NCBI RefSeq assembly: GCF_016863295.1
Contig: NZ_BOOP01000021.1
Location: forward strand, 124,001 to 188,000
Direction: 5' to 3'
Source of the DNA: Planotetraspora phitsanulokensis
GTDB taxonomy: Bacteria; Actinomycetota; Actinomycetes; Streptosporangiales; Streptosporangiaceae
Length of the DNA stretch: 64,000 bases
Shown here: positions 10,190-47,253 of the stretch, piece by piece
How the letters are laid out: every line of letters begins with the position of its first letter
How positions within the stretch are numbered: the first letter of the stretch is position 1
The notes under the pieces: generated by a model
What the model saw: only the letters and a program-made list of their open reading frames with translations
What the model was told of the DNA's origin: nothing
Database searches by the model: none
Translations under genes and position numbers: made by a program

Positions 10190-10258
10190 CTTCTCTGCCT
10201 TCGTCAGCTGTCAGGCGATGGTGGCGAGTGACGACGGTGATGATCCGCCACTCATCGA

Positions 10259-10353
10259 ACTAATCTGGCACGCGAGTAGCCCCAAAGAGATCAAGGCTCT
10301 AATGGGAATCGTGTCCCTGACCTGGGTCTTTGCTCGTGGAGCGGGTGACGGGA
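10259..10353 (+). repeat. decayed integrase terminator / tRNA-Gly att relic
   Basis: Has AATCTGGCACGCGAGTAG and AAAGAGATCAAGG, a worn terminator hairpin (CTGACCTGGGTCTTTG arm), and then GGAGCGGGTGACGGGA, the outermost 16 bases of the tRNA-Gly 3' end. The match stops at 10353, where unrelated coding-like sequence begins, so this looks like one junction of an old insertion. Confidence 0.75.
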
Positions 10354-28829: not shown

Positions 28830-28930
28830 CGTCAGAAAAGATCAATACTCGGGTCGGGAATGCTCCCTGCCTGGGCATTCGTGTGTGGTGCGGCCGACGG
28901 GAATTGAACCTGCGCTTGTCAGCTTGGGAA
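28830..28930 (+). repeat. decayed terminator plus tRNA-Gly 3' relic
   Basis: CAGAAAAGATCAATACTCGG and TCGGGAATGCTCC, then CCTGGGCATTC, are a worn copy of the integrase terminator. 28887-28930 is a diverged copy of the 43-bp tRNA-Gly end (GGGAATTGAACCTGCG, then CTTGTCAGCTTGGGAA). The following TCGGCTAGTGATC flank is shared with the fresher copy at 43,650, which suggests the same kind of element in both places. Confidence 0.8.
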
Positions 28931-36769: not shown

Positions 36770-36880
36770 CCGGGGTCAGCCCCAGCGTTGTTGGCGTTCG
36801 GGCCATCGCCGACGCGCTGGGCAGGCTCGCCACGGAGGCGCTGAACAAGCAAGATCACGACGGATCGGGCACGTAAGGGG
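36770..36880 (+). pseudogene. integrase C-terminal relic
   Basis: Retains GCCATCGCCGACGCGCTGGG, AGGCTCGCCACGGAGGCGCT and GGATCGGGCACGTAA, matching the last 40 residues of the integrase fragments at 40.8 and 43.5 kb (AIADALGKPAKEALSKEDPD). Everything upstream is lost. It is directly followed by the terminator and tRNA copy. Confidence 0.8.
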
Positions 36881-36904
36881 CACGGAAGATCGAAATGGCG
36901 CCGA

Positions 36905-37000
36905 AAAAGATCAAGGCCTGGGTCGAGAAACTATCTCTGACCTGGGCCTTTTCGTGTGGAGCGGGTGACGGGAATCGAACCCGCGCTGTCAGCTTGGGAA
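36905..37000. repeat. integrase terminator plus tRNA-Gly 43-bp att copy 1
   Basis: Hairpin AAGGCCTGGGTC ... GACCTGGGCCTT (36913-36952), then 36958-37000, an exact copy of the tRNA-Gly 3' 43 bases (GGAGCGGGTGACGGGAATCG through CAGCTTGGGAA). The downstream flank (GTGTATGGATTACG onward for about 90 bases) is shared with copy 3 at 40.9 kb, so these two came from the same element type. Confidence 0.85.
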
Positions 37001-37506
37001 GTGTATGGATTACGGCTCCTAGGGGCGCTGAGCTGGGCTTCGGGTCGGTCATGAGTGACCGTGGTTGACCCCTCTTCACCCTGGTTAATGGCGCGCTAAT
37101 GGCCCGGCGGTCATGCCGTGTCTCCGATGCACGAGGCCCCCGCACGTAGGGAAGGGCTAGTCCCTGTCGTGTCTGGCCGAGGGGGGTCGGAGGCGGCCGG
37201 ATATTCGCCCGGAGGGCATCGATGACCCAGGCGTGCTGCGCGCGAAGCCCCCAGCGGTCAGCTGGTCGCGGATGGGTCCGCACCAGCGTGGCCACCCATG
37301 CCGCGCCGTGCCCATGACAGCGCATCTGAGTGCGGTGTTCGCGCCTCGTAAGACCTTCGGAGCCGAAGCTCGGCGATCTCAAGGTAAGAACCGCGGTCCG
37401 GCGGATGCTAACGATGCGGAGGTCCGGGTGGGGCCGTGCCCTTCCGCCGTTTGTCTGCCAGCCGTGCCGGTCGCGACCCGGCGTGGTGCGACCTTGAGGA
37501 GCCCTC
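37001..37506. other. gene-free stretch
   Basis: About 500 bases. The first 90 match the flank of the 40.9-kb att copy. The rest holds no frame that looks coding and no RNA gene. Several short pieces are AT-richer than the surroundings. It appears to be debris between two insertions. Confidence 0.4.
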
Positions 37507-37695
37507 ATGACCGTCCTGAACCCCGACGACCGGTTCCCGGAGCTGACCGTCTCGCTGTCTAGGGGCGCCGAACTCACCCTGCCCGACGCGCTGTCGGGCG
37601 ACTACGGCGTGCTGCTGGACTACCGGGGCGCGTAGTGCCCGTACTGCAACACCCAGCTGCGGGCGACACCTGTCACATATGTGCCTCACGTTGAA
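37507..37695 (+). pseudogene. AhpC/TSA-type peroxiredoxin N-terminal remnant
   Basis: Translates as MTVLNPDDRFPELTVSLSRG, then TLPDALSGDYGVLLDYRGA, stop, CPYCNTQLRA. The redoxin-fold opening and the CPYC active site are clear, but the codon just before CPYC, usually Trp, is TAG, and the gene ends soon after. A broken gene rather than a selenoprotein, since the stop is TAG and no body follows. Confidence 0.75.
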
Positions 37696-37794
37696 CCAGT
37701 GATGTTTTGAGAGCCGCGTTCGGGTTTCGCTGGCCGCCACCGGTCTGCCGTTGCTGCAGCACTTGATTCCTTCGATTACTCACAGAGGATGAAC

Positions 37795-38310
37795 ATGACG
37801 TTTTACATCTCCCCAGAAGCGGATGACCTTGCCACCACTCCCGGAGGCATCTATGTACCCGTCAACGGCGGGCGTACCAAGTGGTTTTCCGGCGACGTCT
37901 ATTCGGTGAAGCTGACGGCCGCGCAGACGAAAGGATCGCTGGGTGTCGTGGAAGCCTCCGTTCCGCCAGGCGGCGGCCCGGTAGCACACACCCATGCCGA
38001 CCAGGACGAGACGTTCTACCTGCTTGCTGGAGAACTCGAGTTCCTGGACGGTGATAGGACGTTCACCGCAGGGGTCGGTGACCTGGTCCACTGCCCGCGC
38101 GGCGTGCGCCACCGCTTCAAGAACGTCGGACTCCACACAGCCAGGATGCTGTTCTTCTACACACCTGGAGGCTCCGAGGGATTGTTCTTGGACGGCGGCG
38201 ACGACCCGGAGCCGGGCGTCCAGGTCCCGACCTGGGGCCCAGAACGCTTCCAAGGGCACGTGCTCGACCTCTTCGCGAAGTACGGCCTGGAGGCGTTGCC
38301 TGAAGGCTGA
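37795..38310 (+). CDS. cupin-domain protein (quercetin-dioxygenase-like)
   Basis: 171-173 residues. Cupin barrel with motif 1 HTHADQDETFYLLAGELEFL (two His, Glu ligands) and motif 2 GDLVHCPRGVRHRFKN. These residues would hold Fe, Mn or Ni; members include quercetinases and sensor-type cupins. The end PTWGPERFQGHVLDLFAKYG is helical. ATG 37795 has AGAGG seven bases upstream; ATG 37789 is two codons earlier. Stand-alone cargo gene between two scars. Confidence 0.85.
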   Translation: MTFYISPEADDLATTPGGIYVPVNGGRTKWFSGDVYSVKLTAAQTKGSLGVVEASVPPGGGPVAHTHADQDETFYLLAGELEFLDGDRTFTAGVGDLVHCPRGVRHRFKNVGLHTARMLFFYTPGGSEGLFLDGGDDPEPGVQVPTWGPERFQGHVLDLFAKYGLEALPEG

Positions 38311-38334
38311 ACGTCCCCGCGGAGCATGGTGACG

Positions 38335-38660
38335 TCCCCTGGGGTGGTGTAACTCCAAGCTGGTGAAGCAGCCCCGGACATGGGGCGAGCCATCGTGTGA
38401 CGGTCAGCGAGTTCCCGACCAAAGGTTCTCGCGGAGGACACCACACGATGGCTCTGGATCAGTCTGCCCTGCTCGACCTGTTGGAGTCTTTGAAAGCCGC
38501 CGACGCCGACGATGCCATCCGCCACGCTCTGTAAGCAGTGCTGTAAGCGTTGATCGAGGCGGAGGCGACCGCTGTGATCGGCGCCGCCTCGCACCAGCGC
38601 ACCGATCAACGCATTACGCACCGCAACGGGCACCGAGACCGGCTGCTTGCAATATAGGTG
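38335..38660 (+). mobile_element. IS256-family transposase relic
   Basis: CCTGGGGTGGTGTAACTCCA at the left looks like an IS256-family end. ATG at 38448 begins MALDQSALLDLLESLKAADA, followed by stops, then ALIEAEATAVIGAASHQRTD and THRNGHRDR, the N-terminal zone of an IS256-type (mutator) transposase. The catalytic DDE part is gone, and at least two stops interrupt what is left. Inactive. Confidence 0.85.
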
Positions 38661-38737
38661 CGAGATCTTGGTGGCGGGACCCGGCGCGCAGGGCATGTGG
38701 CAGGTCAGGATCTATGAGCGGACGGGAAAGGTCACGT

Positions 38738-38790
38738 GCTGTAAGACCGTCGGCTCAGCCTACGCAAGTTCGAACCTTGCACCTGCCACA
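38738..38790 (+). repeat. tRNA-Tyr 3'-half relic
   Basis: CTGTAAGACCGTCGGCTCAG holds a GTA anticodon and the start of the variable arm, then GCAAGTTCGAACCTTGC is a perfect T-arm, then ACCTGCCACA. The 5' half (acceptor, D-arm) is absent, so it is not a functional gene. It is what a tRNA-Tyr-directed integrase would carry as its att site. Orientation is opposite to all tRNA-Gly relics. Confidence 0.7.
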
Positions 38791-38798
38791 CCAGCCAA

Positions 38799-38842
38799 AA
38801 GAGGCCCCTGATCAGCAGAGATGCCGGTCGGGGGCTTCTTTG
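38799..38842 (+). terminator. hairpin after the tRNA-Tyr relic
   Basis: AAGAGGCCCC and GGGGGCTTCTTT pair across a loop with inner pairing. It lies right after the tRNA-Tyr piece, as in elements whose integrase gene ends next to att. Confidence 0.55.
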
Positions 38843-38989
38843 TTCATGATCCGTGAGTGACCGTGATTCCCCGCTGTTTCCCGTGGGATATGGCACGCCT
38901 GTGGCACGTGATCAAGCTCGTACCCACGCGCGAGAGGTGCTCCGTGAGCCTTCTGTTTACAAGGTCCCCAAACGATCTCCAACGGAGTC

Positions 38990-39526
38990 CTACCAGCCGG
39001 CACCGGTCTGCCAGCGCTGAACCCATTCGATGAAGCCGATGGCTTCTGGACCGGGGTAGGGGGAGGCGCCGACGTCGGCAACAAACCAGATCTTCCCGCG
39101 TTGCGTGCCGGTGAGCACCAGGAGCCAGTATGAGAGCTCATCGTCTGTGCCCAAGACGATGGAGCCGTGGTTGTAGACGTCGGCGATGCGTTGGTCGGAA
39201 TCAGGTATGGAGTCGATTTCGTCCTCCCAGTGCCATGCGTGGTCGAGAGGGAAGGCGGCCCCCGGGATGCGATCTCCCTGGTCAGGCCAACCCGGTGGAA
39301 GCCAGCCGAGGGGCAGGAGGCCGCCATCCTCAGGGGGGCCCAAGGAGGAACCATTGGCGACCTCGGCGATGAACGTGCGATAGGGCTCAGGCAGGCGGGC
39401 ACCGTTCTCGCCCTCCCAGGCTGCAACGCCTTCTAGTCCTAACGGGGGCTCTCGCCACTCAGCGGGAAACGCGGCCTGAAGCGCTTCGAGGTCCCCGGTA
39501 AGGGACGCGTCATTGGTTGCATCCAT
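38990..39526 (-). CDS. SMI1/KNR4-family protein
   Basis: 178 residues from ATG 39526. It has the SMI1/KNR4 pattern: WREPPLGLEGVAAWEGENGA, LPEPYRTFIAEVANGSSLGP, PLGWLPPGWPDQGDR and GIWFV-like KIWFVADVGASPYPGPEAIG. In bacteria this fold is often the immunity protein of a contact-dependent toxin, but no toxin gene is seen nearby. Stand-alone, between two att scars, so it is probably cargo. Confidence 0.8.
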   Translation of the reverse strand: MDATNDASLTGDLEALQAAFPAEWREPPLGLEGVAAWEGENGARLPEPYRTFIAEVANGSSLGPPEDGGLLPLGWLPPGWPDQGDRIPGAAFPLDHAWHWEDEIDSIPDSDQRIADVYNHGSIVLGTDDELSYWLLVLTGTQRGKIWFVADVGASPYPGPEAIGFIEWVQRWQTGAGW

Positions 39527-39634
39527 GGCCCAGTGGTACCAGATGCCTCTGCGGGACGCCTCATGGGACCAAGCGCCGACAACAAGCAGTGTCCGGGTCG
39601 CGAGACCACCCCTGACCTGGTCTTTCGCGATGAT

Positions 39635-39675
39635 GGCGGGTGACGGGAATCGAACCCGCGCTGTCAGCTTGGGAA
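39635..39675. repeat. tRNA-Gly att copy 2
   Basis: GCGGGTGACGGGAATCGAAC through CAGCTTGGGAAG, matching the 43-bp tRNA end except the first bases. The hairpin before it is worn (CCCTGACCTGGTCTTTCG) and no integrase is attached. The following flank (TCTTTCAACACCATGCGG onward, about 120 bases) is shared with copies at 42.5 and 44.6 kb. Confidence 0.85.
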
Positions 39676-39879
39676 GTCTTTCAACACCATGCGGTCTGAG
39701 CTGGGAAAAGGCTGACCTGGGCGTAGGCGGGTCGAGTGACCGTGAGTCCCCGTGATTCCCTGTGGGTTGCCGACCGTACGGGCACGCAACGGGCACGGCA
39801 GCAGCGATCAGCGCCCTTTGACGCCAGAAGGTTTCGTTCCGTGATGGGCTGACCGGGTACGGCCCAGCATCAGGACCGT

Positions 39880-40347
39880 CTATGCCATGTCCGGCCGATC
39901 ATGCTCCTGCGAGGGAACCAGCAGGATGTCGCCCAGGTCCCCGCACCTGCGGTGCCACCACGGCCAGGTCTTCGGGGCGTGCGGGTTGGGCAGGGTGCGC
40001 GCCAGGAAGTCACAGTCGAGGTCTTTCACGATTGACGCGATTTCCCGAGCTGCCCGTCTGTCGAGGGCAGCGATGGCGCAATCGATGAGAAGTCGGTCGT
40101 CCCAGAGGTCGTATCCGGGGAGGTGAGGTTTCGGCAGGTAGAGTAGCCGCCCAGGATGACGTAGGAAGAGTCGCCAGCGGACGATGGCATCGGCGATCCG
40201 CCGGGCAGGCAGGCCGCGTTCAGCCTCGAAGCGAGCAACTTTGCGACGCGTGTGAGGTGAGAGTTCCGATGGTCGGCGCCGATATTCCCGCAGGTGGGAT
40301 CGGCAGATGGCATCCAGACGTAGAGCAGCCGCCGACTTGCGGGGCAT
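39880..40347 (-). CDS. hypothetical protein beside an integrase stump
   Basis: 155 residues from ATG 40347, which has GAAGAG upstream. It is basic at the N-terminus (MPRKSAAALRLDAICRSHLR) and Trp-rich at the end (KTWPWWHRRCGDLGDIL). No family recognised. Its upstream end lies only about 45 bases from the start of the truncated integrase on the other strand, so the gene or its segment seems to have replaced the integrase's 5' half. Confidence 0.5.
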   Translation of the reverse strand: MPRKSAAALRLDAICRSHLREYRRRPSELSPHTRRKVARFEAERGLPARRIADAIVRWRLFLRHPGRLLYLPKPHLPGYDLWDDRLLIDCAIAALDRRAAREIASIVKDLDCDFLARTLPNPHAPKTWPWWHRRCGDLGDILLVPSQEHDRPDMA

Positions 40348-40392
40348 GACTCTTCTTTCGCGGGTAGTGATCTCCGTCGAAAATTCTACTGT

Positions 40393-40819
40393 GAAGCCCA
40401 CCGCGGAGCGGCAGCAGGCTGGCAAGCGCATCGTCTCCGTGCCCGAACTCCTCCTGCCGGATTTCCGGACGCACCTGAACACGTACGCGGGGGAGGGGGA
40501 TGAGGGCCTGGTGTTCATCGGGCCGAAGGGCGCCCAGCTACAGCGGACGAACTTCACCCGGACATGGAGCAAGGCGATCAGCGCAGCCAAGCTCACGGGC
40601 TTCCACTTTCATGATCTGCGGCACACGGGAAACACCTTCGTCTCGCAATCCGGTGCGACTCTGCGAGAGCTGATGAACCGCATGGGCCACTCGACCACAC
40701 GGGCCGCGCTGATCTACCAGCACACCGCCATGGAGCGCGACCGGGCCATCGCCGATGCGCTGGGCAAGCCCGCCAAGGAGGCGCTGAGCAAGGAAGATCC
40801 AGATGGATCGGGCACGTAA
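40393..40819 (+). pseudogene. integrase C-terminal fragment
   Basis: About 142 codons of a tyrosine recombinase catalytic domain. It contains KRIVSVPELLLPDFRTHLNT, the HDLRHTGNTF box, MGHSTTRAAL and IYQHTAMERDRAIADALGKP, so the second Arg, both His and the Tyr are present, but the first catalytic Arg and the DNA-binding half are missing. It cannot work alone. Its last 150 bases are nearly identical to 43,370-43,525. Confidence 0.85.
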
Positions 40820-40849
40820 CGGGCACGGAAGATGGAAAAGGTGTCCAAA

Positions 40850-40943
40850 AAGATCAAGGCCCGGGTCGGGAATCGTCCGCTGACCTGGGCCTCTGTGTGT
40901 GGAGCGGGTGACGGGAATCGAACCCGTGCTGTCAGCTTGGGAA
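40850..40943. repeat. integrase terminator plus tRNA-Gly att copy 3
   Basis: AAGGCCCGGGTCGG ... CTGACCTGGGCCT hairpin, then 40901-40943 with one change from the tRNA (CCCGTGCTG for CCCGCGCTG). The flank GTGTATGGATCACG is as in copy 1. Confidence 0.85.
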
Positions 40944-41147
40944 GTGTATGGATCACGCCTCCTGGGAGCGCTGAGCTGGGCTTCGGGTCGGTCATGAGTG
41001 ACCGTGGTTGACCCCTTGTCCCCCTGTGTAATTGCACGCTAATTGCACGACGATCAGGCGGTTCACCCGCGGCTTGACGTGCGTAGCTGCTGCTCAACTC
41101 CCACACCGCGGGCCAGTGGTTGATGAGCGCAGCCCTTCCCTACCGGG

Positions 41148-41594
41148 TCAGCGGTCGAACCACGCTTTGGCAGAGGGTAGGAGCAACAGAAGGAGTACGA
41201 CGACGGGCAGGACCAGGCTGTACATGTTGGGAGGGGGGTCGAGCGTACGTCCGGAGACATAGGTGAGAGCCATGAGGCACTCGAGTCCAAGCGCGGCGAT
41301 CCTGACCCGTCTTCTCCGCGAGATCCACTTGCCTGCCCACCAGCCGATCAGCACTGCGATCACAACGCTGAGGCCGAGAACCAGTGATGTCAGGACATCA
41401 CCTTTGCCGCCCAATGCCGCTAGCGGAGCGATAAGCAGCACGCCGGACAAGAGTCCCAGCGCCCCTTGGACGATCATGATGAACTGGGCGCTTTTAACCG
41501 CGAGCGACATACGCTCGTTCTTCTCTGCCTCAGCCACAGGACCTCTTGGGGGCGCAGTCTGCCTAGGCACTGGGCGTCTGGTCGTGTGCCTCAT
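41148..41594 (-). CDS. small integral membrane protein
   Basis: 148 residues, or 120 if the ATG at 41510 is the start. Four membrane segments: FIMIVQGALGLLSGVLLIAP, VLGLSVVIAVLIGWWAGKW, IAALGLECLMALTYVSG and YSLVLPVVVLLLLLLP. A basic loop follows the second (RRRRVR). No family recognised. Lies between att copy 3 and another integrase stump, so it is cargo of one insertion. Confidence 0.65.
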   Translation of the reverse strand: MRHTTRRPVPRQTAPPRGPVAEAEKNERMSLAVKSAQFIMIVQGALGLLSGVLLIAPLAALGGKGDVLTSLVLGLSVVIAVLIGWWAGKWISRRRRVRIAALGLECLMALTYVSGRTLDPPPNMYSLVLPVVVLLLLLLPSAKAWFDR

Positions 41595-41946
41595 AAGGAC
41601 TGTAATGGTGATCAGAGCCTACTTCCTGTGAGGCTGCGGTTCCGTCCCGGATGTCACCGCGTGCCTGTGACTCCTGCTCTGAACCTCATGCCTAGTAAGA
41701 ACCGCCCCGGAAATACATGCTCTAGTGTGGCCGCGGACGGTCGCGGCGCTCATGTGCGACGTCAGACCGGTCGGCAGGCGCCGACCGCTTGGCTAGAACT
41801 CGCAGCCTCTCCAAGCCGGCGAGGACATCAGAGCGATTGCCAGACCTCTTCATCCATCGTGGCAATCGCGCGAACATGGCCATCGTCGGCCGAGCAACGC
41901 CACGCTCACGTAACCGGGCGCCAACGTAGGCCGCCAGCTCGTTGAC

Positions 41947-42453
41947 GTGCTCGTCGCGGGTACGGTCCGAATCCGGGCGGCCTTCGTCGAACGGTCAACG
42001 GGTGAGCTGGTCCTCGGCGCTCCCAAGTCCAAGGCGGGCCGGCGGATTGTCGGCATCCCGCAGGCCATTGTCCCCGCGCTGCGAGAGCACCTGAACACCT
42101 ACGTTCAGGACGAGCCGGGCGCGTTGCTCTTTCCCGGGGCCAAGGGCGGTGCCTTGCGGCGGAGCGGATTCAACACGCGTACGCGCTGGGTGGACGTGGT
42201 CAAAGACATGGGGCTGCCCGGCCTGCACTTCCACGATCTTCGGCATACGGGCAACATGCTCGCCGCCGAGTCCGGCTCGGCTCTCAAGGACCTGATGACC
42301 AGGATGGGGCACGACAACGTCCGGGCGGCGATGATCTATCAGCATGCGGTCCGGGGTGCCGATAAGTCGATCACGGATGCGATCGACAAGCACATCAGCA
42401 GGGCTGATGACGACGAGGGTGGTTCGGCCGTGGTCCTGGTCCCCGTGAGCTAA
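41947..42453 (+). pseudogene. integrase C-terminal fragment, second type
   Basis: Catalytic half of a tyrosine recombinase: GAPKSKAGRRIVGIPQAIVP, FHDLRHTGNMLAAESGSALK, DLMTRMGHDNVRAAMIYQHA, ending DKHISRADDDEGG. It differs enough from the other fragments to be a separate integrase lineage, and it matches the 13.5-kb scar. First catalytic Arg and N-terminal half absent. Confidence 0.83.
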
Positions 42454-42489
42454 TTGCACGTTAATTGCACGGAAGATCGAAAAGGTGTC

Positions 42490-42586
42490 CAAAAGATCAA
42501 TTCCCGGGTCGGGAATCATCCTCTGACCTCGGCCTTTGTGTGTGGAGAGGGTGACGGGAATCGAACCCGCGCTGTCAGCTTGGGAA
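42490..42586. repeat. integrase terminator plus tRNA-Gly att copy 4
   Basis: AAAAGATCAATTCCCGGGTC ... CTGACCTCGGCCTTTG hairpin, partly decayed, then 42544-42586 with GGAGAGGGTG for GGAGCGGGTG. The flank is TCTTTCAACATCATGC, as in copies 2 and 6. Confidence 0.85.
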
Positions 42587-42881
42587 GTCTTTCAACATCA
42601 TGCCGGGTGACCTGGGGAAACGGTGACCTGCGCGTATGCCGGTCGAGTGACCGTGAGTCCCCGTGATTCCCCGATGCTTGCCGACCGTACGGGCACGCAA
42701 CGGGCACGCCGAACGCTTCTCGTGTGCCGAGCACGAAGACGCCGTCGAAGAGTAGTACGGCGTCTGCGGGGGCGGTCGTGGCCGGCTCGTCGGACTCGGC
42801 ATCCTTGTGCACGGGTGGATCGAATCGTGTCAGACTCAACTGGCGTGATCAGGGCGCCTTACAGACAAGGCAGGACACCCG

Positions 42882-43301
42882 ATGGCAGCCGACGACCAGC
42901 CTCCCGTGATTTCGCTGATGCTCGCCGTGCCTGACGCCTCAGCCGCAGCGCGATGGTATGCCCAGGCGCTTGGGGCCATCGAGTTGTGGAACCTTGGCGG
43001 CGTGGTGGGACTGACCGTCGAGGGCGCCCCATTCTTTCTCGGCGAACCTACGAACAACAAGTGGGACACCCCTGCCGTCCTCGGCTCCAGAACGGTACGT
43101 GTCGAGGTCTTCGTGGATAATCCCGACAGCTTCATCGAGCGCGCCGTTGCGGCCGGAGCGGACGGCAGTGTTGACGAGATTCGCGACCACGAGGCGCCAT
43201 GGGGCGTTCACCGGCAGGGCGGCTTCATCGACCCGTTCGGCCATCTGTGGCTTGTCGGCGACAGATCCCCGCTCAGGAAACACGACATCCGGAACGGCTG
43301 A
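42882..43301 (+). CDS. VOC (glyoxalase-fold) protein
   Basis: 139 residues. Typical VOC layout: SLMLAVPDASAAARWYAQAL, then FVDNPDSFIERAVAAGADGS and GGFIDPFGHLWLVGDRS, which has the C-terminal Glu/His-type metal loop (here DPFGHLW). Related proteins are often called PhnB-like or bleomycin-resistance-like without proof. Cargo gene between two att copies. Confidence 0.85.
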   Translation: MAADDQPPVISLMLAVPDASAAARWYAQALGAIELWNLGGVVGLTVEGAPFFLGEPTNNKWDTPAVLGSRTVRVEVFVDNPDSFIERAVAAGADGSVDEIRDHEAPWGVHRQGGFIDPFGHLWLVGDRSPLRKHDIRNG

Positions 43302-43354
43302 CTGGTCACAGGGTTGGTGGAGGTACAGAGGTCGAGCGCTGTCGCGCTGGATTG

Positions 43355-43525
43355 ATCGAGAACAGCGGAGGCGAGCTGATGAACCGCATGGGCCACTCGA
43401 CCACGCGGGCCGCGCTGATCTACCAGCACACCGCCATGGAACGCGACCGGGCCATCGCCGATGCGCTGGGCAAGCCCGCCAAGGAGGCGCTGAGCAAGGA
43501 AGATCCAGATGGATCGGGCACGTAA
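43355..43525 (+). pseudogene. integrase C-terminal fragment
   Basis: Only the final 50 codons: GELMNRMGHSTTRAALIYQH through KPAKEALSKEDPDGSGT. Nucleotide sequence is almost the same as 40,669-40,819, so one is a recent copy of the other or both came from near-identical elements. Retains the last His and Tyr only. Confidence 0.85.
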
Positions 43526-43555
43526 CGGGCACGGAAGATCGAAATGGCGCCAGAA

Positions 43556-43649
43556 AAGATCAAGGCCCGGGTCGAGAAACTATCTCCGACCTGGGCCTTT
43601 GTCGTTGGAGCGGGTGACGGGAATCGAACCCGCGCTGTCAGCTTGGGAA
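43556..43649. repeat. integrase terminator plus tRNA-Gly att copy 5
   Basis: Hairpin AAGGCCCGGGTCGAG ... CGACCTGGGCCTTTG, then 43607-43649 identical to the tRNA end. Flank TCGGCTAGTGATCTACCC, shared with the older relic at 28.9 kb. Confidence 0.87.
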
Positions 43650-43828
43650 TCGGCTAGTGATCTACCCTCTATGAGCTGGGAGACAGGGGGTGCAGCTCAG
43701 GCGTGGTCGAGTCCCCGTGACTCCCCGTCAGTCCCCGCTGATCGCCGTTCAATCTGGCACGCATCTGGCACGCGATCAAGATCTCCGTGTCGTGGCGCTG
43801 TCGGCCCAGCCTGGCATCATGCACCGTC

Positions 43829-44404
43829 GTGGATATCGATGAATTCTGGCTCTTCCTTCAACGGTCCCGACAGGTGACTAGTGATCCCAATGAGCGTCTG
43901 CGGTGGCTCGCCCTCCACCTCGCACAGCGTCCGCCGACCAAGATCGTCGACTTTCAGATCCTCCTCAACCAGGTACGCCGGCGATCCGACACCTACGACA
44001 TGTGGGAAGCCGCCAACCTCATCGGCGGTGGCTGCTCCACCGACGGCTTCTGGTACTTCCAGGCGTGGCTGATTGGGCTCGGCCGCGACATTTTCGAGCG
44101 TGTCGTGGCCGACCCCGACAACCTGGCCGAGGTCCCGGAGGTGCAGCGGTTGGCAGAGCGCCCGATGGGCGGGTGGGCCGATGACGAGTGGCCGGGATGG
44201 GAGGCGCTGAGCTACGTGGCCGCCGACGCATACGCAGAGGTGACCGGTGAAGAGGAGGGTGTCTACGATGCCATGGAAGAACGCGGGCACACCGACCAGA
44301 GCGATCCCCAGCCTTCAGGGCTTCCGTGGAGACTCCGCGACCCCGAAGCGGTGGCTCAGAGGTTGCCCCGGTTGAGCCGCATGTTCCAACGAGATGAATC
44401 GTGA
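43829..44404 (+). CDS. DUF4240 protein
   Basis: About 191 residues from GTG 43829 (an ATG at 43787 is in frame). It fits DUF4240: DIDEFWLFLQRSRQVTSDPN, LLNQVRRRSDTYDMWEAANL, GGGCSTDGFWYFQAWLIGLG and FERVVADPDNLAEVPEV. This domain occurs beside WGR/SMI1-like proteins and in possible toxin-immunity settings; function unproven. No ribosome site is obvious. Cargo between att copies 5 and 6. Confidence 0.78.
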   Translation: MDIDEFWLFLQRSRQVTSDPNERLRWLALHLAQRPPTKIVDFQILLNQVRRRSDTYDMWEAANLIGGGCSTDGFWYFQAWLIGLGRDIFERVVADPDNLAEVPEVQRLAERPMGGWADDEWPGWEALSYVAADAYAEVTGEEEGVYDAMEERGHTDQSDPQPSGLPWRLRDPEAVAQRLPRLSRMFQRDES

Positions 44405-44568
44405 TCCGATGCAGGGAGACGCGGTTACGCACCTGCGTGCACTCCGCCCCTGCTCATCCCGTCTGCCGTGGACCCACCCGCAGGGGAAGCGGATCAGGGC
44501 TAGGCGGTCCCAGAAGCCAAGAACCGATCTGGCGCTGGATCCCTGTCCTGAGCTGGGCCTTCGCTATT

Positions 44569-44611
44569 GGAGCGGGTGACGGGAATCGAACCCGCGCTGT
44601 CAGCTTGGGAA
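44569..44611. repeat. tRNA-Gly att copy 6
   Basis: Exact copy of the 43-bp tRNA end, preceded by a partial terminator arm (CTGAGCTGGGCCTTCG) but no integrase. It is the last copy before the element with the intact integrase. Confidence 0.85.
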
Positions 44612-44966
44612 GTCTTTCAACACCATGCGGCCTGAGCTGGGAAAACGCTGACCTGGGCGTATGTCGGTCGAGTGACCGTGAGTCCTCGTGAATCCCCGCC
44701 GGTCGCCGTCCGTACGGGCACGCAACGGGCACGCCGAACGCTTCCCGTGTGGAGGGCGCCCTGAGTGCCCGGGGACGATCTACGACCTGTGACGGAGATG
44801 GCTCCGCAGAGGTGCCTGCGGTCGTGGAGCTGGGCAGCGGGGGCGCTCGTGGTTTGTCGAGGGCGTGGAAGATTGGCCCGATGTCATACTCACGGCTTGC
44901 CGTCACCCCAACGCTGTAGTCCGTCCCGGCGCCTGTTGTGGGCGCGATGGCGACGCGGTAGATGTA
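44612..44966. other. gene-free stretch
   Basis: 355 bases. The first 130 or so match the flanks of att copies 2 and 4 (TCTTTCAACACCATGCGG, then GTGACCGTGAGTC and GGCACGCAACGGGCACGCCG). No gene seen in the rest. Confidence 0.5.
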
Positions 44967-45275
44967 TCACTTTCTACTTAATTCAACGCAATCGTTTCTC
45001 CCGATGGTAAGCCAGTTAAGGATGTCAAGCGGGTTGGAGGAATGTCGGCAGCGGCATGTGAGCGAGACGGTTTCACTTTCGCGGACTTCAATATCCAATA
45101 CGCGGCTACCACACCAATCAATAACGCATCGAACTTGATGCGTGCCCGGCGAAACGGCAATAATTGCAGTTTGCCCTTGTTTTAGCCGAGCAACATCGCG
45201 ACCGTCCACGCGTACTTTTAAAGTGCGAAGGGATCCACTAAGACTCCTTTCGCGAGAGATCTCAATCTGCGCCAT
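44967..45275 (-). CDS. small protein with atypical base composition
   Basis: 102 residues from ATG 45275, opening MAQIEISRERSLSGSLRTLK. A repeated strand pattern (VRVDGRDVARLKQGQTAIIA, VSPGTHQVRCVIDWCGSRVL) suggests a small beta-sandwich like PEGA-type domains. The gene is clearly lower in GC than its neighbours, with many A/T-ending codons, so it is likely from a different host. It lies just upstream of, and divergent from, the replication-initiator remnant in the youngest element. Confidence 0.6.
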   Translation of the reverse strand: MAQIEISRERSLSGSLRTLKVRVDGRDVARLKQGQTAIIAVSPGTHQVRCVIDWCGSRVLDIEVRESETVSLTCRCRHSSNPLDILNWLTIGRNDCVELSRK

Positions 45276-45353
45276 GTTGCACCAGGCCAATCTGTCAGGC
45301 GATGAGCATCCGGTGTGCACTCATACATCGGCGGCATGGCGGTTGTCGTTTCA

Positions 45354-45649
45354 TGGCCCGCCGCTACTCCACCACCTTCGCCGCCCTACGCGGAGCACGC
45401 GTGCTGTACCGCCGTACCCAGCAGGTCGGTCGCGAGTACGACCCGGACGCGATTCAGCGTCAAGGCGACCTTGACGACGAAACGACGCTCATCATCGGCG
45501 ACCTGTCCTATGCCGGATCCGGGTGGAGAACCACCGGAGACGCGCTCCTGGCCAACACCGCCGCCGACCAAGCCCGCAAACGCCGCGTCGCCGGCCGCGA
45601 AGAGATCGCCCACCAACTCGCCACAGAAGAAACGCCGATCGCTGCCTGA
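45354..45649 (+). pseudogene. replication initiator 3' fragment
   Basis: Encodes MARRYSTTFAALRGARVLYR, then LIIGDLSYAGSGWRTTGDAL and LANTAADQARKRRVAGREE, which I recognise as the C-terminal end of the replication initiator of pSAM2-like actinomycete integrative elements. The Rep domain is gone. It is followed after 23 bases by the excisionase gene, the usual rep-xis-int order. Confidence 0.7.
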
Positions 45650-45672
45650 CCGCAATTGATAAGGAGGAACCG

Positions 45673-45924
45673 ATGGCACATCCACGAGAACAAGAGCGTT
45701 CCGCTGACCGCCTCCTGACGGTTGCGGAAGTAGCGGAACGGCTCGGCACCACCGAACGATTCCCCCGGCGGCTCATAGAAGAGCGGCGCATCGCCTTCGT
45801 CCGTCTCGGTCGCAAGGTACGCATCCCGGAATCGGCCCTTGACGCCTTCATCGCTGAGGGCTTGGTCCAGCCCATCACTGCGGCTACAGAGCCGACGCGT
45901 GCGGGAAAGAGGAGGGCTGCCTGA
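45673..45924 (+). CDS. xis: excisionase (MerR-type HTH)
   Basis: 83 residues. DNA-binding helix-turn-helix: LLTVAEVAERLGTTERFPRR, LIEERRIAFVRLGRKVRIPE. It is the small basic protein that directs the integrase towards excision. AAGGAGG precedes ATG 45673. The stop overlaps the integrase start (TGATG), so both are translated together. FPRR in place of the more common YVRR/FVRR after TTER may slightly alter the recognition helix. Confidence 0.87.
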   Translation: MAHPREQERSADRLLTVAEVAERLGTTERFPRRLIEERRIAFVRLGRKVRIPESALDAFIAEGLVQPITAATEPTRAGKRRAA

Positions 45925-47087
45925 TGGGCGGGAACACCAAGGGTTACCGGCGTCGGTTCGGCGCTGTTCGTAAGCTGCCGTCTGGGCGCTACCAGGCGCG
46001 CTACGTCGGACCCGATGAGATTGAACGCACGGCTCCTCAGACCTTCACCAGCAAGAGGGATGCAGAGGTCTGGCTGGGCAAGAAGGAAACCGAGATCCTG
46101 GGGCAGGAGCGGACCGACCCGCTCGCCGGGAAGATCGCATTTCACGACTACGCGGCGGCTTGGATGGCTGAGCGGACGCTCACACCTAAGACGGCTCAGC
46201 TCTATGAGGGTCTGCTGATACTGCACATCAACCCCACACTCGGCAGCAAGCCGCTCGCCGAGATCACCAGCCGGCACGTCCGGCAGTGGCATACAAGGCT
46301 CGTCGAGAGGAGTCCTGGTGCGTCTACCGTTGCGAAGGCATATCGGCTGCTCCGCGCGATTCTCAACACCGCAATACAGGATGACCTGATCAAGAGGAAT
46401 CCGTGTCAGATCAAGAACGCGGGGGTTGAGCGCCCTGAGGAACGACCAGGGCTGACCGTGCCCGAGGTGTTCGTACTGGCCGCTGCCGTGCCTCCCCGAT
46501 TCCGCGCCCTGGTGCTCCTCGCCACTTTCGGCAGTCTGCGTTGGGGCGAATTGGCGGCCCTGCGCCGGCACAACCTCGATCTGGAAGCACGGACGGTCAA
46601 GGTTGAGGCTTCGCTGTCGGAGATGAAGACGGGCGAGCTGATCACGGGGCGTCCTAAGTCGGATGCGGGTGCTCGGGTGGTCGCGCTACCGGAGGTGATC
46701 ATCGGTGATCTCGCCTGGCACCTTCAGCGCTTCAGTGAACAGGCACCCGATGGTCTGGTGTTCGTGGGGGAGAAGGGCGCCCAGCTTAGGCGCAGCAATT
46801 TCACGAAGGTCTGGGCGAAGGCACTGGCCAAGACGGGACTCCCGAAGATCCACATCCATGACCTTCGACACACAGGTAACACACTCGCGGCTGCGACGGG
46901 CGCGACGCTCAAGGAGCTGATGACTCGCATGGGCCACTCCAGCACGAAAGCTGCCACGGTCTATCTGCATGCCGCCAAGGACAGGGATCGTGCCATTGCC
47001 GACGCTATGGGGGAGATCGTCAAGCAGGGGCTCGGCGCGAAGGACGGTGGCGATGATTCGCCCCACGTCGGAGCCAAGATCAACTGA
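45924..47087 (+). CDS. int: tyrosine integrase, full length
   Basis: 387 residues. Arm-binding N-terminus (about 10-60), SAM-like core-binding domain (about 70-160) and catalytic domain (about 175-365). Catalytic residues: Arg206 (GSLRWGELAALRR), His312-x-x-Arg315 (IHDLRHTGN), His338 (MGHSS) and Tyr347 (TVYLHA). All are present, so the enzyme may be active. It lies one terminator away from the intact tRNA-Gly, its likely target. The cognate left att is probably copy 6 at 44,569, giving a residual element of about 2.7 kb. Confidence 0.92.
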   Translation: MGGNTKGYRRRFGAVRKLPSGRYQARYVGPDEIERTAPQTFTSKRDAEVWLGKKETEILGQERTDPLAGKIAFHDYAAAWMAERTLTPKTAQLYEGLLILHINPTLGSKPLAEITSRHVRQWHTRLVERSPGASTVAKAYRLLRAILNTAIQDDLIKRNPCQIKNAGVERPEERPGLTVPEVFVLAAAVPPRFRALVLLATFGSLRWGELAALRRHNLDLEARTVKVEASLSEMKTGELITGRPKSDAGARVVALPEVIIGDLAWHLQRFSEQAPDGLVFVGEKGAQLRRSNFTKVWAKALAKTGLPKIHIHDLRHTGNTLAAATGATLKELMTRMGHSSTKAATVYLHAAKDRDRAIADAMGEIVKQGLGAKDGGDDSPHVGAKIN

Positions 47088-47130
47088 TCTGGCACGAATC
47101 TGGCACGCGAGCGAGAAACAACCCCCACAA

Positions 47131-47173
47131 AGATCAAGGCCCGAGCCGAGAAACTACCTCTGACCTGGGCCTT
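47131..47173 (+). terminator. integrase terminator
   Basis: AAGGCCCGAGCCGAG ... CTCTGACCTGGGCCTTTG: a stem of about 7-10 bp closing with a T-rich end, 45 bases after the integrase stop. The same hairpin accompanies most tRNA-Gly copies in the window, so it is part of the element family. Confidence 0.75.
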
Positions 47174-47182
47174 TGCTGTTGG

Positions 47183-47253
47183 AGCGGGTGACGGGAATCG
47201 AACCCGCGCTGTCAGCTTGGGAAGCTGATGTTCTGCCATTGAACTACACCCGC
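47183..47253 (-). tRNA. tRNA-Gly(CCC)
   Basis: Reading the minus strand: acceptor GCGGGTG pairs with CACCCGC, a D-arm with TAGTTCAATGGCAGAA, anticodon arm TCAGC-TTCCCAA-GCTGA with CCC anticodon, and T-arm GCGGGTTCGATTCCCG. CCA is encoded (47182-47180). It is the only complete copy; the 3' 43 bases are the repeated att sequence. It decodes GGG. The gene's 3' half may have been supplied by the integrated element. Confidence 0.93.

What the first reader, a model, noticed from the sequence alone, without database searches (positions are those of the whole stretch)
36770..47253. Seven copies of the tRNA-Gly(CCC) 3' end, five trailing integrases or integrase stumps
A 43-bp segment of the intact tRNA gene recurs at 36958, 39635, 40901, 42544, 43607 and 44569, always in the same orientation. 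Most copies are preceded by the 3' end of an integrase gene and a conserved terminator. Each interval holds one to three unrelated small genes (cupin, SMI1/KNR4, membrane protein, VOC, DUF4240). This is a record of repeated integration at one tRNA gene. It may behave like a gene-capturing array in which each new element pushes older cargo away from the target.
Basis: seen in the sequence. Interest (0 to 1): 0.72.

Follow-up and report, generated by a model that had tools for sequence, protein, structure and literature searches.

The report
tRNA-anchored array of decayed mobile elements
Next to one glycine tRNA gene, soil bacteria of this family have piled up the ends of many self-moving DNA elements, most now reduced to one to three passenger genes between copies of the tRNA tail, and at least one such small unit appears to have travelled between species.

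Summary
One intact tRNA-Gly(CCC) gene (47180-47253, minus strand) and six 41-45 bp copies of its 3' part lie in one orientation (none in 100 shuffles). Five of the seven sites follow an integrase or integrase 3' stump. The tRNA-proximal unit is a remnant of a pSAM2-type actinomycete integrative and conjugative element (AICE): RepSA C-terminal piece, excisionase, full-length integrase. In three relatives, units with integrase, RepSA and an FtsK-type protein lie at or next to the tRNA. The genus is Planotetraspora or very near. Of 200 family genomes, 81 hold three or more core copies, at most 14. Short repeats beside the sites go with the integrase clade (25 of 26). Cargo shared between sister species keeps orientation (40 of 43) but is partly reordered. 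One cassette without a usable integrase is 99.0% identical in two species whose tRNA flanks are 81.6% identical. Best reading: serial AICE accretion at one tRNA, decay to cassettes, and exchange of some cassettes. Accretion and decay are known; the depth, spread and cassette exchange were not seen in the papers listed by six searches. Mobility is inferred, not tested.

The parts
47180..47253 (-). intact tRNA-Gly(CCC); its 3' 45 nt (47180-47224) are the present attachment core
   Evidence: ARAGORN
36957..37001 (+). att core copy 1 (45 bp, 100%)
39636..39676 (+). att core copy 2 (41 bp, 100%), no integrase or clear hairpin on its left
40900..40944 (+). att core copy 3 (45 bp, 97.8%)
42543..42587 (+). 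att core copy 4 (45 bp, 97.8%)
43606..43649 (+). att core copy 5 (44 bp, 100%); left end of the CTGG-arm unit predicted to excise
44568..44612 (+). att core copy 6 (45 bp, 100%), no integrase on its left
28896..28930 (+). older degraded att core (91% over 35 bp) followed by a CTGG-type right arm
10224..10353 (+). similarity to a site of G001 (75% over 150 bp) ending in 17 bp of core: probable remnant of an older site
45924..47087 (+). full-length tyrosine integrase, 387 aa
   Evidence: Pfam PF00589 1.5e-17
45673..45924 (+). excisionase (HTH_17 / TIGR01764 excise)
45302..45649 (+). C-terminal remnant of RepSA (pSAM2 replication initiator)
   Evidence: PF20199 3.7e-12, profile 377-437 of 438; NCBIfam RepSA far below its cut-off, as expected of a piece
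40304..40819 (+). integrase 3' stump, third clade
   Evidence: tblastn
41950..42453 (+). integrase 3' stump, 95% identical to the full-length integrase of sister G003
43373..43525 (+). integrase 3' stump, third clade (about 50 aa)
36799..36876 (+). integrase 3' stump
   Evidence: DNA similarity to stump-bearing sites
47089..47107 (+). left arm repeat CTGGCACG x2, 11-bp period
43754..43772 (+). right arm repeat CTGGCACG x2, matching 47089-47107
40809..40827 (+). left arm repeat CGGGCACG x2 (pairs with right arm 39779-39797)
39779..39797 (+). right arm repeat CGGGCACG x2
42453..42471 (+). left arm repeat ATTGCACG x2 (pairs with right arm 41031-41049)
41031..41049 (+). right arm repeat ATTGCACG x2
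43515..43533 (+). left arm repeat CGGGCACG x2 (pairs with right arm 42690-42708)
42690..42708 (+). right arm repeat CGGGCACG x2
44715..44733 (+). right arm repeat CGGGCACG x2, not matched by the next left arm (CTGG)
37088..37106 (+). right arm repeat ATGGCGCG/ATGGCCCG (one mismatch); no left arm found at the next site
47128..47180 (-). hairpin, probable terminator, between integrase and tRNA 3' end
   Evidence: -21.6 kcal/mol, z -3.4 on the minus strand; z -2.1 on +
37789..38310 (+). cargo: cupin protein
   Evidence: PF07883 4.2e-17
38990..39526 (-). cargo: SMI1/KNR4 (SUKH-1) protein, start chosen by eye
   Evidence: PF09346 3.3e-7
39880..40347 (-). cargo: ORF without a family, start chosen by eye
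41148..41594 (-). cargo: small protein, no family above cut-off, membrane-like by eye
42882..43301 (+). cargo: VOC/glyoxalase-like protein
   Evidence: PF18029 4.5e-6
43787..44404 (+). cargo: DUF4240 protein (scanned from 43820)
   Evidence: PF14024 5.8e-39
44967..45320 (-). cargo: DUF2846-like protein (weak, below cut-off)
   Evidence: PF11008 E 0.005

Best explanation
The locus is an accretion array of pSAM2-type AICEs at the 3' end of tRNA-Gly(CCC). Each AICE inserts at the intact tRNA site, restores the tRNA with its own copy of the 3' part plus a hairpin, and leaves the older copy one interval further out. Most AICEs then lose an internal stretch (transfer genes, RepSA, excisionase, 5' part of the integrase), leaving [att core - right arm - one to three cargo genes - integrase 3' stump - left arm - hairpin - att core]. 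Some of these decayed units remain exchangeable: carried with, or acted on by, integrases that recognise the arms, or swapped by homologous recombination between the conserved site modules. Shown: anatomy, AICE identity, sister and family distribution, arm-to-integrase association, cassettes more alike between species than the tRNA flank in 8 of 10 genome pairs. Inferred: that insertion was at the tRNA and deletion followed; that integrase or RecA moves the cassettes; that 43606-47180, with CTGG arms at both ends and xis and int of full length, can still excise.
For: RepSA piece, xis and int beside the tRNA. Int + RepSA + FtsK_SpoIIIE in G145 (18.2-kb interval at the tRNA), G003 (at the tRNA, contig begins inside the element) and G102 (11.5-kb interval one site from the tRNA). 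125 same-orientation core sites in 21 stretches of 16 genomes: 35 have an integrase fragment within 400 bp; 5 are near full-length by query cover, 3 of them at the tRNA, 1 at the next site, 1 (G074) split into two ORFs in a stretch without the tRNA; 104 intervals, median 2.0 kb, far below the 11-18 kb units. Left arm kind goes with integrase clade in 25 of 26 (shuffle mean 9.0, largest 19 of 20000). Of 46 cargo blocks shared between or within Planotetraspora arrays, 15 left ends lie at an att module (random 3.2, 0 of 1000 as high) and 9 right ends (random 4.1, P 0.014). Orientation kept in 40 of 43 inter-genome blocks while 26 of 76 order comparisons are discordant. TetR cassette with the same cargo/integrase-remnant junction in G001 and G004: 99.0% over 1548 bp against 81.6% in the tRNA flank. 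Cargo of the two tRNA-proximal intervals: no match over 130 bp in 4 sisters; distal ones in 4, 1, 3, 2 of 4.
Against: Right and left arms of one interval match exactly in only 8 of 23 testable intervals (shuffle mean 5.2, P 0.12): 6 of 10 below 2 kb, 2 of 13 above. With one mismatch allowed, 11 of 23 against a shuffle mean of 10.7. The intervals that hold the G145 and G102 elements are among the mismatched. So many intervals are fused from two elements, or arms need not match. Core decay against distance is not significant when pooled (rho 0.17, P 0.19), and G145 has ten perfect cores 20-47 kb from the tRNA. 50 of 76 order comparisons are concordant, so part of the array may be inherited or moved in blocks. 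In 2 of 10 genome pairs the shared cargo is less alike than the flank (G002-G003 92.5 against 96.2%; G001-G003 89.5 against 90.6%, one block), and blocks under 80% or 350 bp were not counted, which lifts the cargo means. The arm-clade association can reflect common descent of stump and arm rather than binding, and its groups were set after seeing the list. The 99% cassette differs from its twin in the hairpin beside the core, and its left end in G004 is a contig end. No excision data.
Confidence: 0.82

Rival explanations
1. Integron-like system: the 1-2 kb units are native cassettes that integrases move in trans, with AICE integrases as the recombinase and the tRNA 3' end as the recombination site.
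For: Median interval 2.0 kb over 104 intervals; fixed orientation with partial reordering; an integrase-less cassette with one junction in two species; arm kinds that go with integrase clades.
Against: Units carry integrase 3' stumps cut at many different places, which fits decay and not a native cassette form; AICE gene sets at or next to the tRNA; only 8 of 23 intervals keep matched arms.
Confidence: 0.15
2. Same accretion and decay, but the shuffling is by RecA-dependent recombination between the conserved hairpin-core-arm modules, not by integrase. (Compatible with the accretion part of the best explanation; the odds are for this being the main route.)
For: The modules are conserved over 100-300 bp; the TetR cassettes of G001 and G004 differ in the hairpin just left of the core, so the exchange point may lie outside the core; the same cargo follows different arms (G001a:44425 and G004a:22418, 97.1%).
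Against: Nothing here separates it from integrase action; the two routes predict the same orientation and similar edges.
Confidence: 0.4
3. One ancestral island, inherited vertically and eroded differently in each species.
For: G003 keeps 36906-41631 almost colinear; 50 of 76 order comparisons are concordant; in 2 of 10 pairs the cargo is not more alike than the flank.
Against: In 8 of 10 pairs shared cargo (pair means 87.8-98.2%) is more alike than the flank (81.4-90.5%); different neighbours on one or both sides; proximal cargo not found in the four sisters.
Confidence: 0.06
4. Prophage remnants or duplications of a tRNA fragment, unrelated to AICEs.
For: Tyrosine integrases and tRNA sites are shared by phages (general knowledge).
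Against: RepSA and FtsK-type genes, and no phage structural family among the 20 proteins scanned; most copies carry arms or stumps beyond the tRNA part.
Confidence: 0.03

Closest known systems
AICE accretion and decay in a Streptomyces population (Choufa et al. 2022, PMC9513070; passages and the whole of section 14 seen)
   Same: 1-3 AICEs or defective AICEs at one tRNA-Arg between direct repeats; decayed sites with a partial integrase, cargo and two direct repeats; cis-mobilization proposed.
   Different: In what I saw, one to three elements per site; here up to 14 core copies in a genome, median interval 2.0 kb in the stretches examined, across many genera of one family, with evidence of cassettes exchanged between species.
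Tandem AICEs of Frankia and S. avermitilis (Ghinet et al. 2011, PMC3218068; passages seen)
   Same: Tandem AICEs in one tRNA gene; the Frankia pair excises singly and together.
   Different: Two-element tandems; it was called unclear there whether AICE number is limited by inability to form tandem arrays at one site.
Dehalococcoides ssrA islands (McMurdie et al. 2011, PMC3146451; passages seen)
   Same: Multiple tandem islands beside one RNA gene, marked by repeats of its 3' end (40 aligned positions); some suggested to be cis-mobilizable.
   Different: Serine recombinase, 20-bp repeat, other phylum, a different six-gene integration module.
CIMEs and tandem accretion of ICESt1 relatives in Streptococcus (Pavlovic et al. 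2004, seen only as a cited title; rest recalled)
   Same: att-flanked units without recombination genes that can move in cis.
   Different: Different element family; small arrays (recalled).
Chromosomal integrons (recalled)
   Same: Ordered cassettes of small unrelated genes between repeated sites read by a tyrosine recombinase.
   Different: Integrase not of the IntI family by score; sites are tRNA 3' ends with arms; units carry integrase stumps. attC-like folds not tested.

Membership tests
pSAM2-type AICE (tRNA-proximal unit) | tyrosine integrase beside a tRNA att site | tested here: met
   45924-47087, att at 47180
pSAM2-type AICE (tRNA-proximal unit) | excisionase next to integrase | tested here: met
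   45673-45924, TIGR01764
pSAM2-type AICE (tRNA-proximal unit) | replication initiator (RepSA) | tested here: not met
   only a C-terminal piece remains: a remnant, not an AICE
pSAM2-type AICE (tRNA-proximal unit) | TraB/FtsK transfer gene | tested here: not met
   none among the five ORFs of 43606-47180 scanned; present in the G003, G145 and G102 elements
Accretion array (tandem elements at one site) | several att copies in one orientation, elements with one integration specificity | tested here: met
   7 sites in the window; stumps of three integrase groups beside the same core
CIME (cis-mobilizable unit without recombination genes) | both att sites kept, no complete integrase | tested here: met
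   e.g. 42543-43606; TetR cassette of G001
CIME (cis-mobilizable unit without recombination genes) | excises or transfers with a helper | not testable with these tools
   only indirect: 99.0% cassette in two species
Integron | IntI integrase | tested here: not met
   29 bits against integrase_gron, cut-off 265
Integron | attC folded sites and attI | not tested
   no attC or attI model run

The most novel reading that the evidence does not exclude
Streptosporangiaceae keep a tRNA-anchored cassette reservoir: AICE integrases of three clades share one core (tRNA-Gly 3' end) and are told apart by clade-specific arm repeats, and they move small integrase-less cassettes within and between species in fixed orientation, so the locus works like an integron built from AICE ends and a tRNA gene.
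Probability: 0.22. Interest if true: 0.82.

Novelty: new variant of a known kind. Interest (0 to 1): 0.58.

Why it matters
In the papers seen, AICE accretion and decay were described as one to three units per site. Here one tRNA gene has served many genera of an actinomycete family as a landing site, leaving deep, partly ordered records of elements and passenger genes. It gives a natural test of whether integrase-less remnants still move, and of how arm repeats might sort integrases that share one core. If they move, this is a route of small-gene exchange in a group rich in natural products.

Tried and rejected
Single ancestral block: disfavoured by neighbours and identities in sister genomes, though 2 of 10 pairs do not show the excess. 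Simple age clock from core decay: positive sign in 8 of 8 genomes, one below P 0.05, pooled not significant, so used only as weak support. Arm matching within each interval as proof of single elements: 3 of 4 in the window, but family-wide 8 of 23 exact (P 0.12) and 11 of 23 with one mismatch (no excess). Left limit of the zone: an empty-site genome (G088) shared only the dcd side, so the limit is unknown. Range outside the family: hairpin, core and CTGG-type right arm (221 nt) searched in 296 class genomes with at most 2 candidates scored in each; by the listing order 28 are of the same family, 16 of them matched (several only in hairpin and core); 16 of the other 268 matched, each only up to query position 112, so none in the arms. 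With that cap, absence of arms elsewhere is not proven. A 37-nt core search cannot see families whose tRNA differs. The first Python scan missed sites 40907 and 43613 of the window and was replaced by blastn. Three fetched stretches (L041, L052, L053) were left out of the site tables from then on because each held only isolated copies.

The family is the tool's (GTDB) family; NCBI places Planotetraspora in Streptosporangiaceae.

Literature: six searches of the open PMC library, of which only the listed best 20, 15, 12, 15, 10 and 2 papers were seen; none of these titles or abstract starts reports a tRNA-Gly array in Streptosporangiaceae. Subscription journals are mostly not held.


Full report
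What is there. The window (contig C21:124001-188000 of a 9.17-Mb genome) holds one intact tRNA-Gly(CCC) on the minus strand and six copies of its 3' part, 41-45 bp, all in one orientation over 10.2 kb. None is expected by chance. Left of the core lies a hairpin (folds of five sites; degraded at 39636 and 44568), left of that, at five sites, a pair of 8-bp repeats with an 11-bp period (one of the five imperfect), and left of that the 3' end of an integrase gene, at 5 of 7 sites. Right of each of the six partial cores lies a second pair of repeats, one of them imperfect. Older, degraded sites lie further left, to C21:120389, so the zone is at least 50 kb.

What the elements were. The unit beside the tRNA carries a C-terminal piece of RepSA, an excisionase and a full-length integrase, the AICE order. 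RepSA is cut and no transfer gene was found among the five ORFs scanned, so it is a remnant with a full-length integration module. In sister G003 the tRNA-side unit has a GntR regulator, an FtsK_SpoIIIE protein, RepSA 537 aa and integrase 444 aa; its far end is off the contig. In G145 (another genus) the 18.2-kb interval at the tRNA holds an FtsK_SpoIIIE protein, RepSA 513 aa and an integrase 75% identical to the window's; in G102 an 11.5-kb interval, one site from the tRNA, holds the same set. Named relatives with an integrase of this kind at tRNA-Gly(CCC): Streptosporangium violaceochromogenes JCM 3281 (residues 1-387, 78%) and Nonomuraea harbinensis CGMCC 4.7106 (1-370, 78%).

How wide. The genus is Planotetraspora or very near it. 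All 5 held genomes of the genus have many partial copies. In 200 genomes drawn from the family, 177 hold at least one match to the 37-nt core with up to 3 mismatches (the tRNA gene itself counts, and copies may lie anywhere in the genome), 112 at least two, 81 at least three, 39 at least five, 7 at least ten, maximum 14. In 21 stretches of 16 genomes (5 of the genus, 11 chosen for many copies) there are 125 sites in one orientation and one inverted, and 104 intervals with median 2.0 kb. 35 of 125 have an integrase fragment within 400 bp; 5 are near full-length by query cover (G000, G003, G145 at the tRNA; G102 at the next site; G074 split into two ORFs, tRNA not in the stretch). Detection used four integrases, so distant or short stumps are missed, among them the one at window 36799.

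Arms. The left arm falls into three kinds, CTGGCACG, CGGGCACG and AT(G/T)GC(A/C)CG with single-letter variants. For the 26 sites with both an integrase fragment and a left arm, the kind goes with the integrase group in 25 (shuffle mean 9.0, largest 19 of 20000). The groups (70% identity cut, first letters of the arm) were set after seeing the list, and stump and arm are inherited together, so this is an association, not proof of binding. The exception is a 42-residue stump of 43% identity. I take these repeats to be the arm-type binding sites of the integrases, as known for pSAM2 (recalled). All three groups share one core. In the window three intervals have matched arms; the last interval (44568-47180) is mismatched, but 43606 has the CTGG right arm that matches the intact integrase at 47180. 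I predict that 43606-47180 is the unit still able to leave. Family-wide the arms of one interval match exactly in 8 of 23 (shuffle mean 5.2, P 0.12), and the intervals with the G145 and G102 elements do not match, so many intervals are fusions or the rule is loose.

Sister comparison, interval by interval (at most 40 candidates per genome were scored in the three searches). The first cargo interval (cupin, SMI1/KNR4) is wholly or partly in 4 of 4 sisters: cupin side in G002 (97%), G004 (96%) and most of it in G003 (98%); only the SMI1/KNR4 stretch in G001 (89% over 557 bp). The second is in G003 (98%). The third (small membrane-like protein) is in G002, G003 (two copies) and G004. The fourth (VOC) is in G001 and G004. 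For the fifth (DUF4240) and sixth (DUF2846-like) no cargo match above 130 bp was found in the four, the longest being 127 bp at 72% in G004, although that search had the laxer threshold. The share falls towards the tRNA, as expected if new units enter there. G003 is colinear with 36906-41631 apart from two indels (317 bp and about 42 bp). In the VOC case the same cargo is joined to different integrase stumps in the window and in G001.

Exchange. Between and within the Planotetraspora arrays, 46 cargo blocks (at least 350 bp, 80% identity) average 92.3%. In 8 of 10 genome pairs the cargo mean (87.8-98.2%) is above the flank right of the tRNA (81.4-90.5%); in G002-G003 (92.5 against 96.2%) and G001-G003 (89.5 against 90.6%, one block) it is not. 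The cut at 80% lifts the cargo means. 15 left ends lie at an att module against 3.2 in random placements and 9 right ends against 4.1. 40 of 43 inter-genome blocks keep their orientation relative to the sites; in the 8 stretch pairs with three or more blocks, 50 order comparisons are concordant and 26 discordant. The strongest single case is a 1.7-kb cassette of G001 (C31:1460-3178): core, CTGG right arm, TetR regulator (PF00440), a 159-aa protein without family, about 15 last codons of an integrase (by eye), CTGG left arm, hairpin, core. It is 99.0% identical over 1548 bp to G004 C53:1-1546, with the same junction of cargo and integrase remnant, while the tRNA flanks are 81.6% identical over 10.1 kb. 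Beyond the core the two differ. I infer that the integrase was lost before the transfer, so an integrase-less unit moved between species. Five of its 16 differences lie in the hairpin next to the core, which leaves open whether the exchange point was the core; in G004 the contig starts inside the cassette, just after the right arm.

Mechanism and known relatives. Insertion at the tRNA, internal deletion, and exchange explain these facts; which enzyme moves the decayed units is not known. Choufa et al. 2022 (PMC9513070, section 14 read, other passages seen) describe the decayed state (partial integrase, cargo, two direct repeats) and propose cis-mobilization; Ghinet et al. 2011 (PMC3218068, passages) report tandem AICEs that excise singly and together; McMurdie et al. 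2011 (PMC3146451, passages) describe tandem ssrA islands in Dehalococcoides. The kind is known; the depth, the spread through a family and the evidence for exchange of decayed cassettes are the new part, as far as the listings can tell.

Limits. Draft assemblies break in the arrays; flank identity is from at most 14 kb beside the tRNA and is not a genome-wide value; the arrays outside the genus were chosen for many copies; block statistics treat related blocks as independent; orientation is relative to the sites because most array contigs lack the tRNA; the genome searches score a capped number of candidates; nothing was tested at the bench.

Noticed in passing
window 38739-38790 and 38890-38908: 52 bp of the 3' end of a tRNA-Tyr(gta) (98% to own contig C10:32906) followed by the same style of arm repeats (by eye), inside the tRNA-Gly array; a similar piece lies about 1.3 kb from the cupin cassette on contig C10 of sister G004. 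Elements or cassettes of two tRNA sites may have mixed.
   Followed up: partly
window 38328-38647: Stretch with copies (about 90-91%) on other contigs of G001, G003, G004 and in Microbispora L106; by eye part of a transposase.
   Followed up: no
window 1-36000: Long run of small unrelated genes (hydrolase-, regulator-, VOC- and acetyltransferase-like ORFs by eye) with site remnants; many blocks recur in sister arrays in other order, so much of the window's left half seems to belong to the same zone.
   Followed up: partly
L109 4006-4623 (Planotetraspora silvatica NZ_BOOQ01000068.1): A tRNA-Gly core copy with an integrase stump lies on a contig with tRNA-Phe/Asp/Glu genes about 1.7 kb away, not beside tRNA-Gly(CCC).
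   Followed up: no
G000 C1:116885-117047: A core copy plus CTGG-type arm (93% over 162 bp) on a different contig of the own genome.
   Followed up: no
window 41060-41956 in G002 C40:57253-58152 and G004 C27:35070-35969: The third cassette recurs at 95-97% on contigs not known to join the tRNA-Gly array, each about 0.1 kb from a core copy: secondary arrays, or distant parts of the same one.
   Followed up: no
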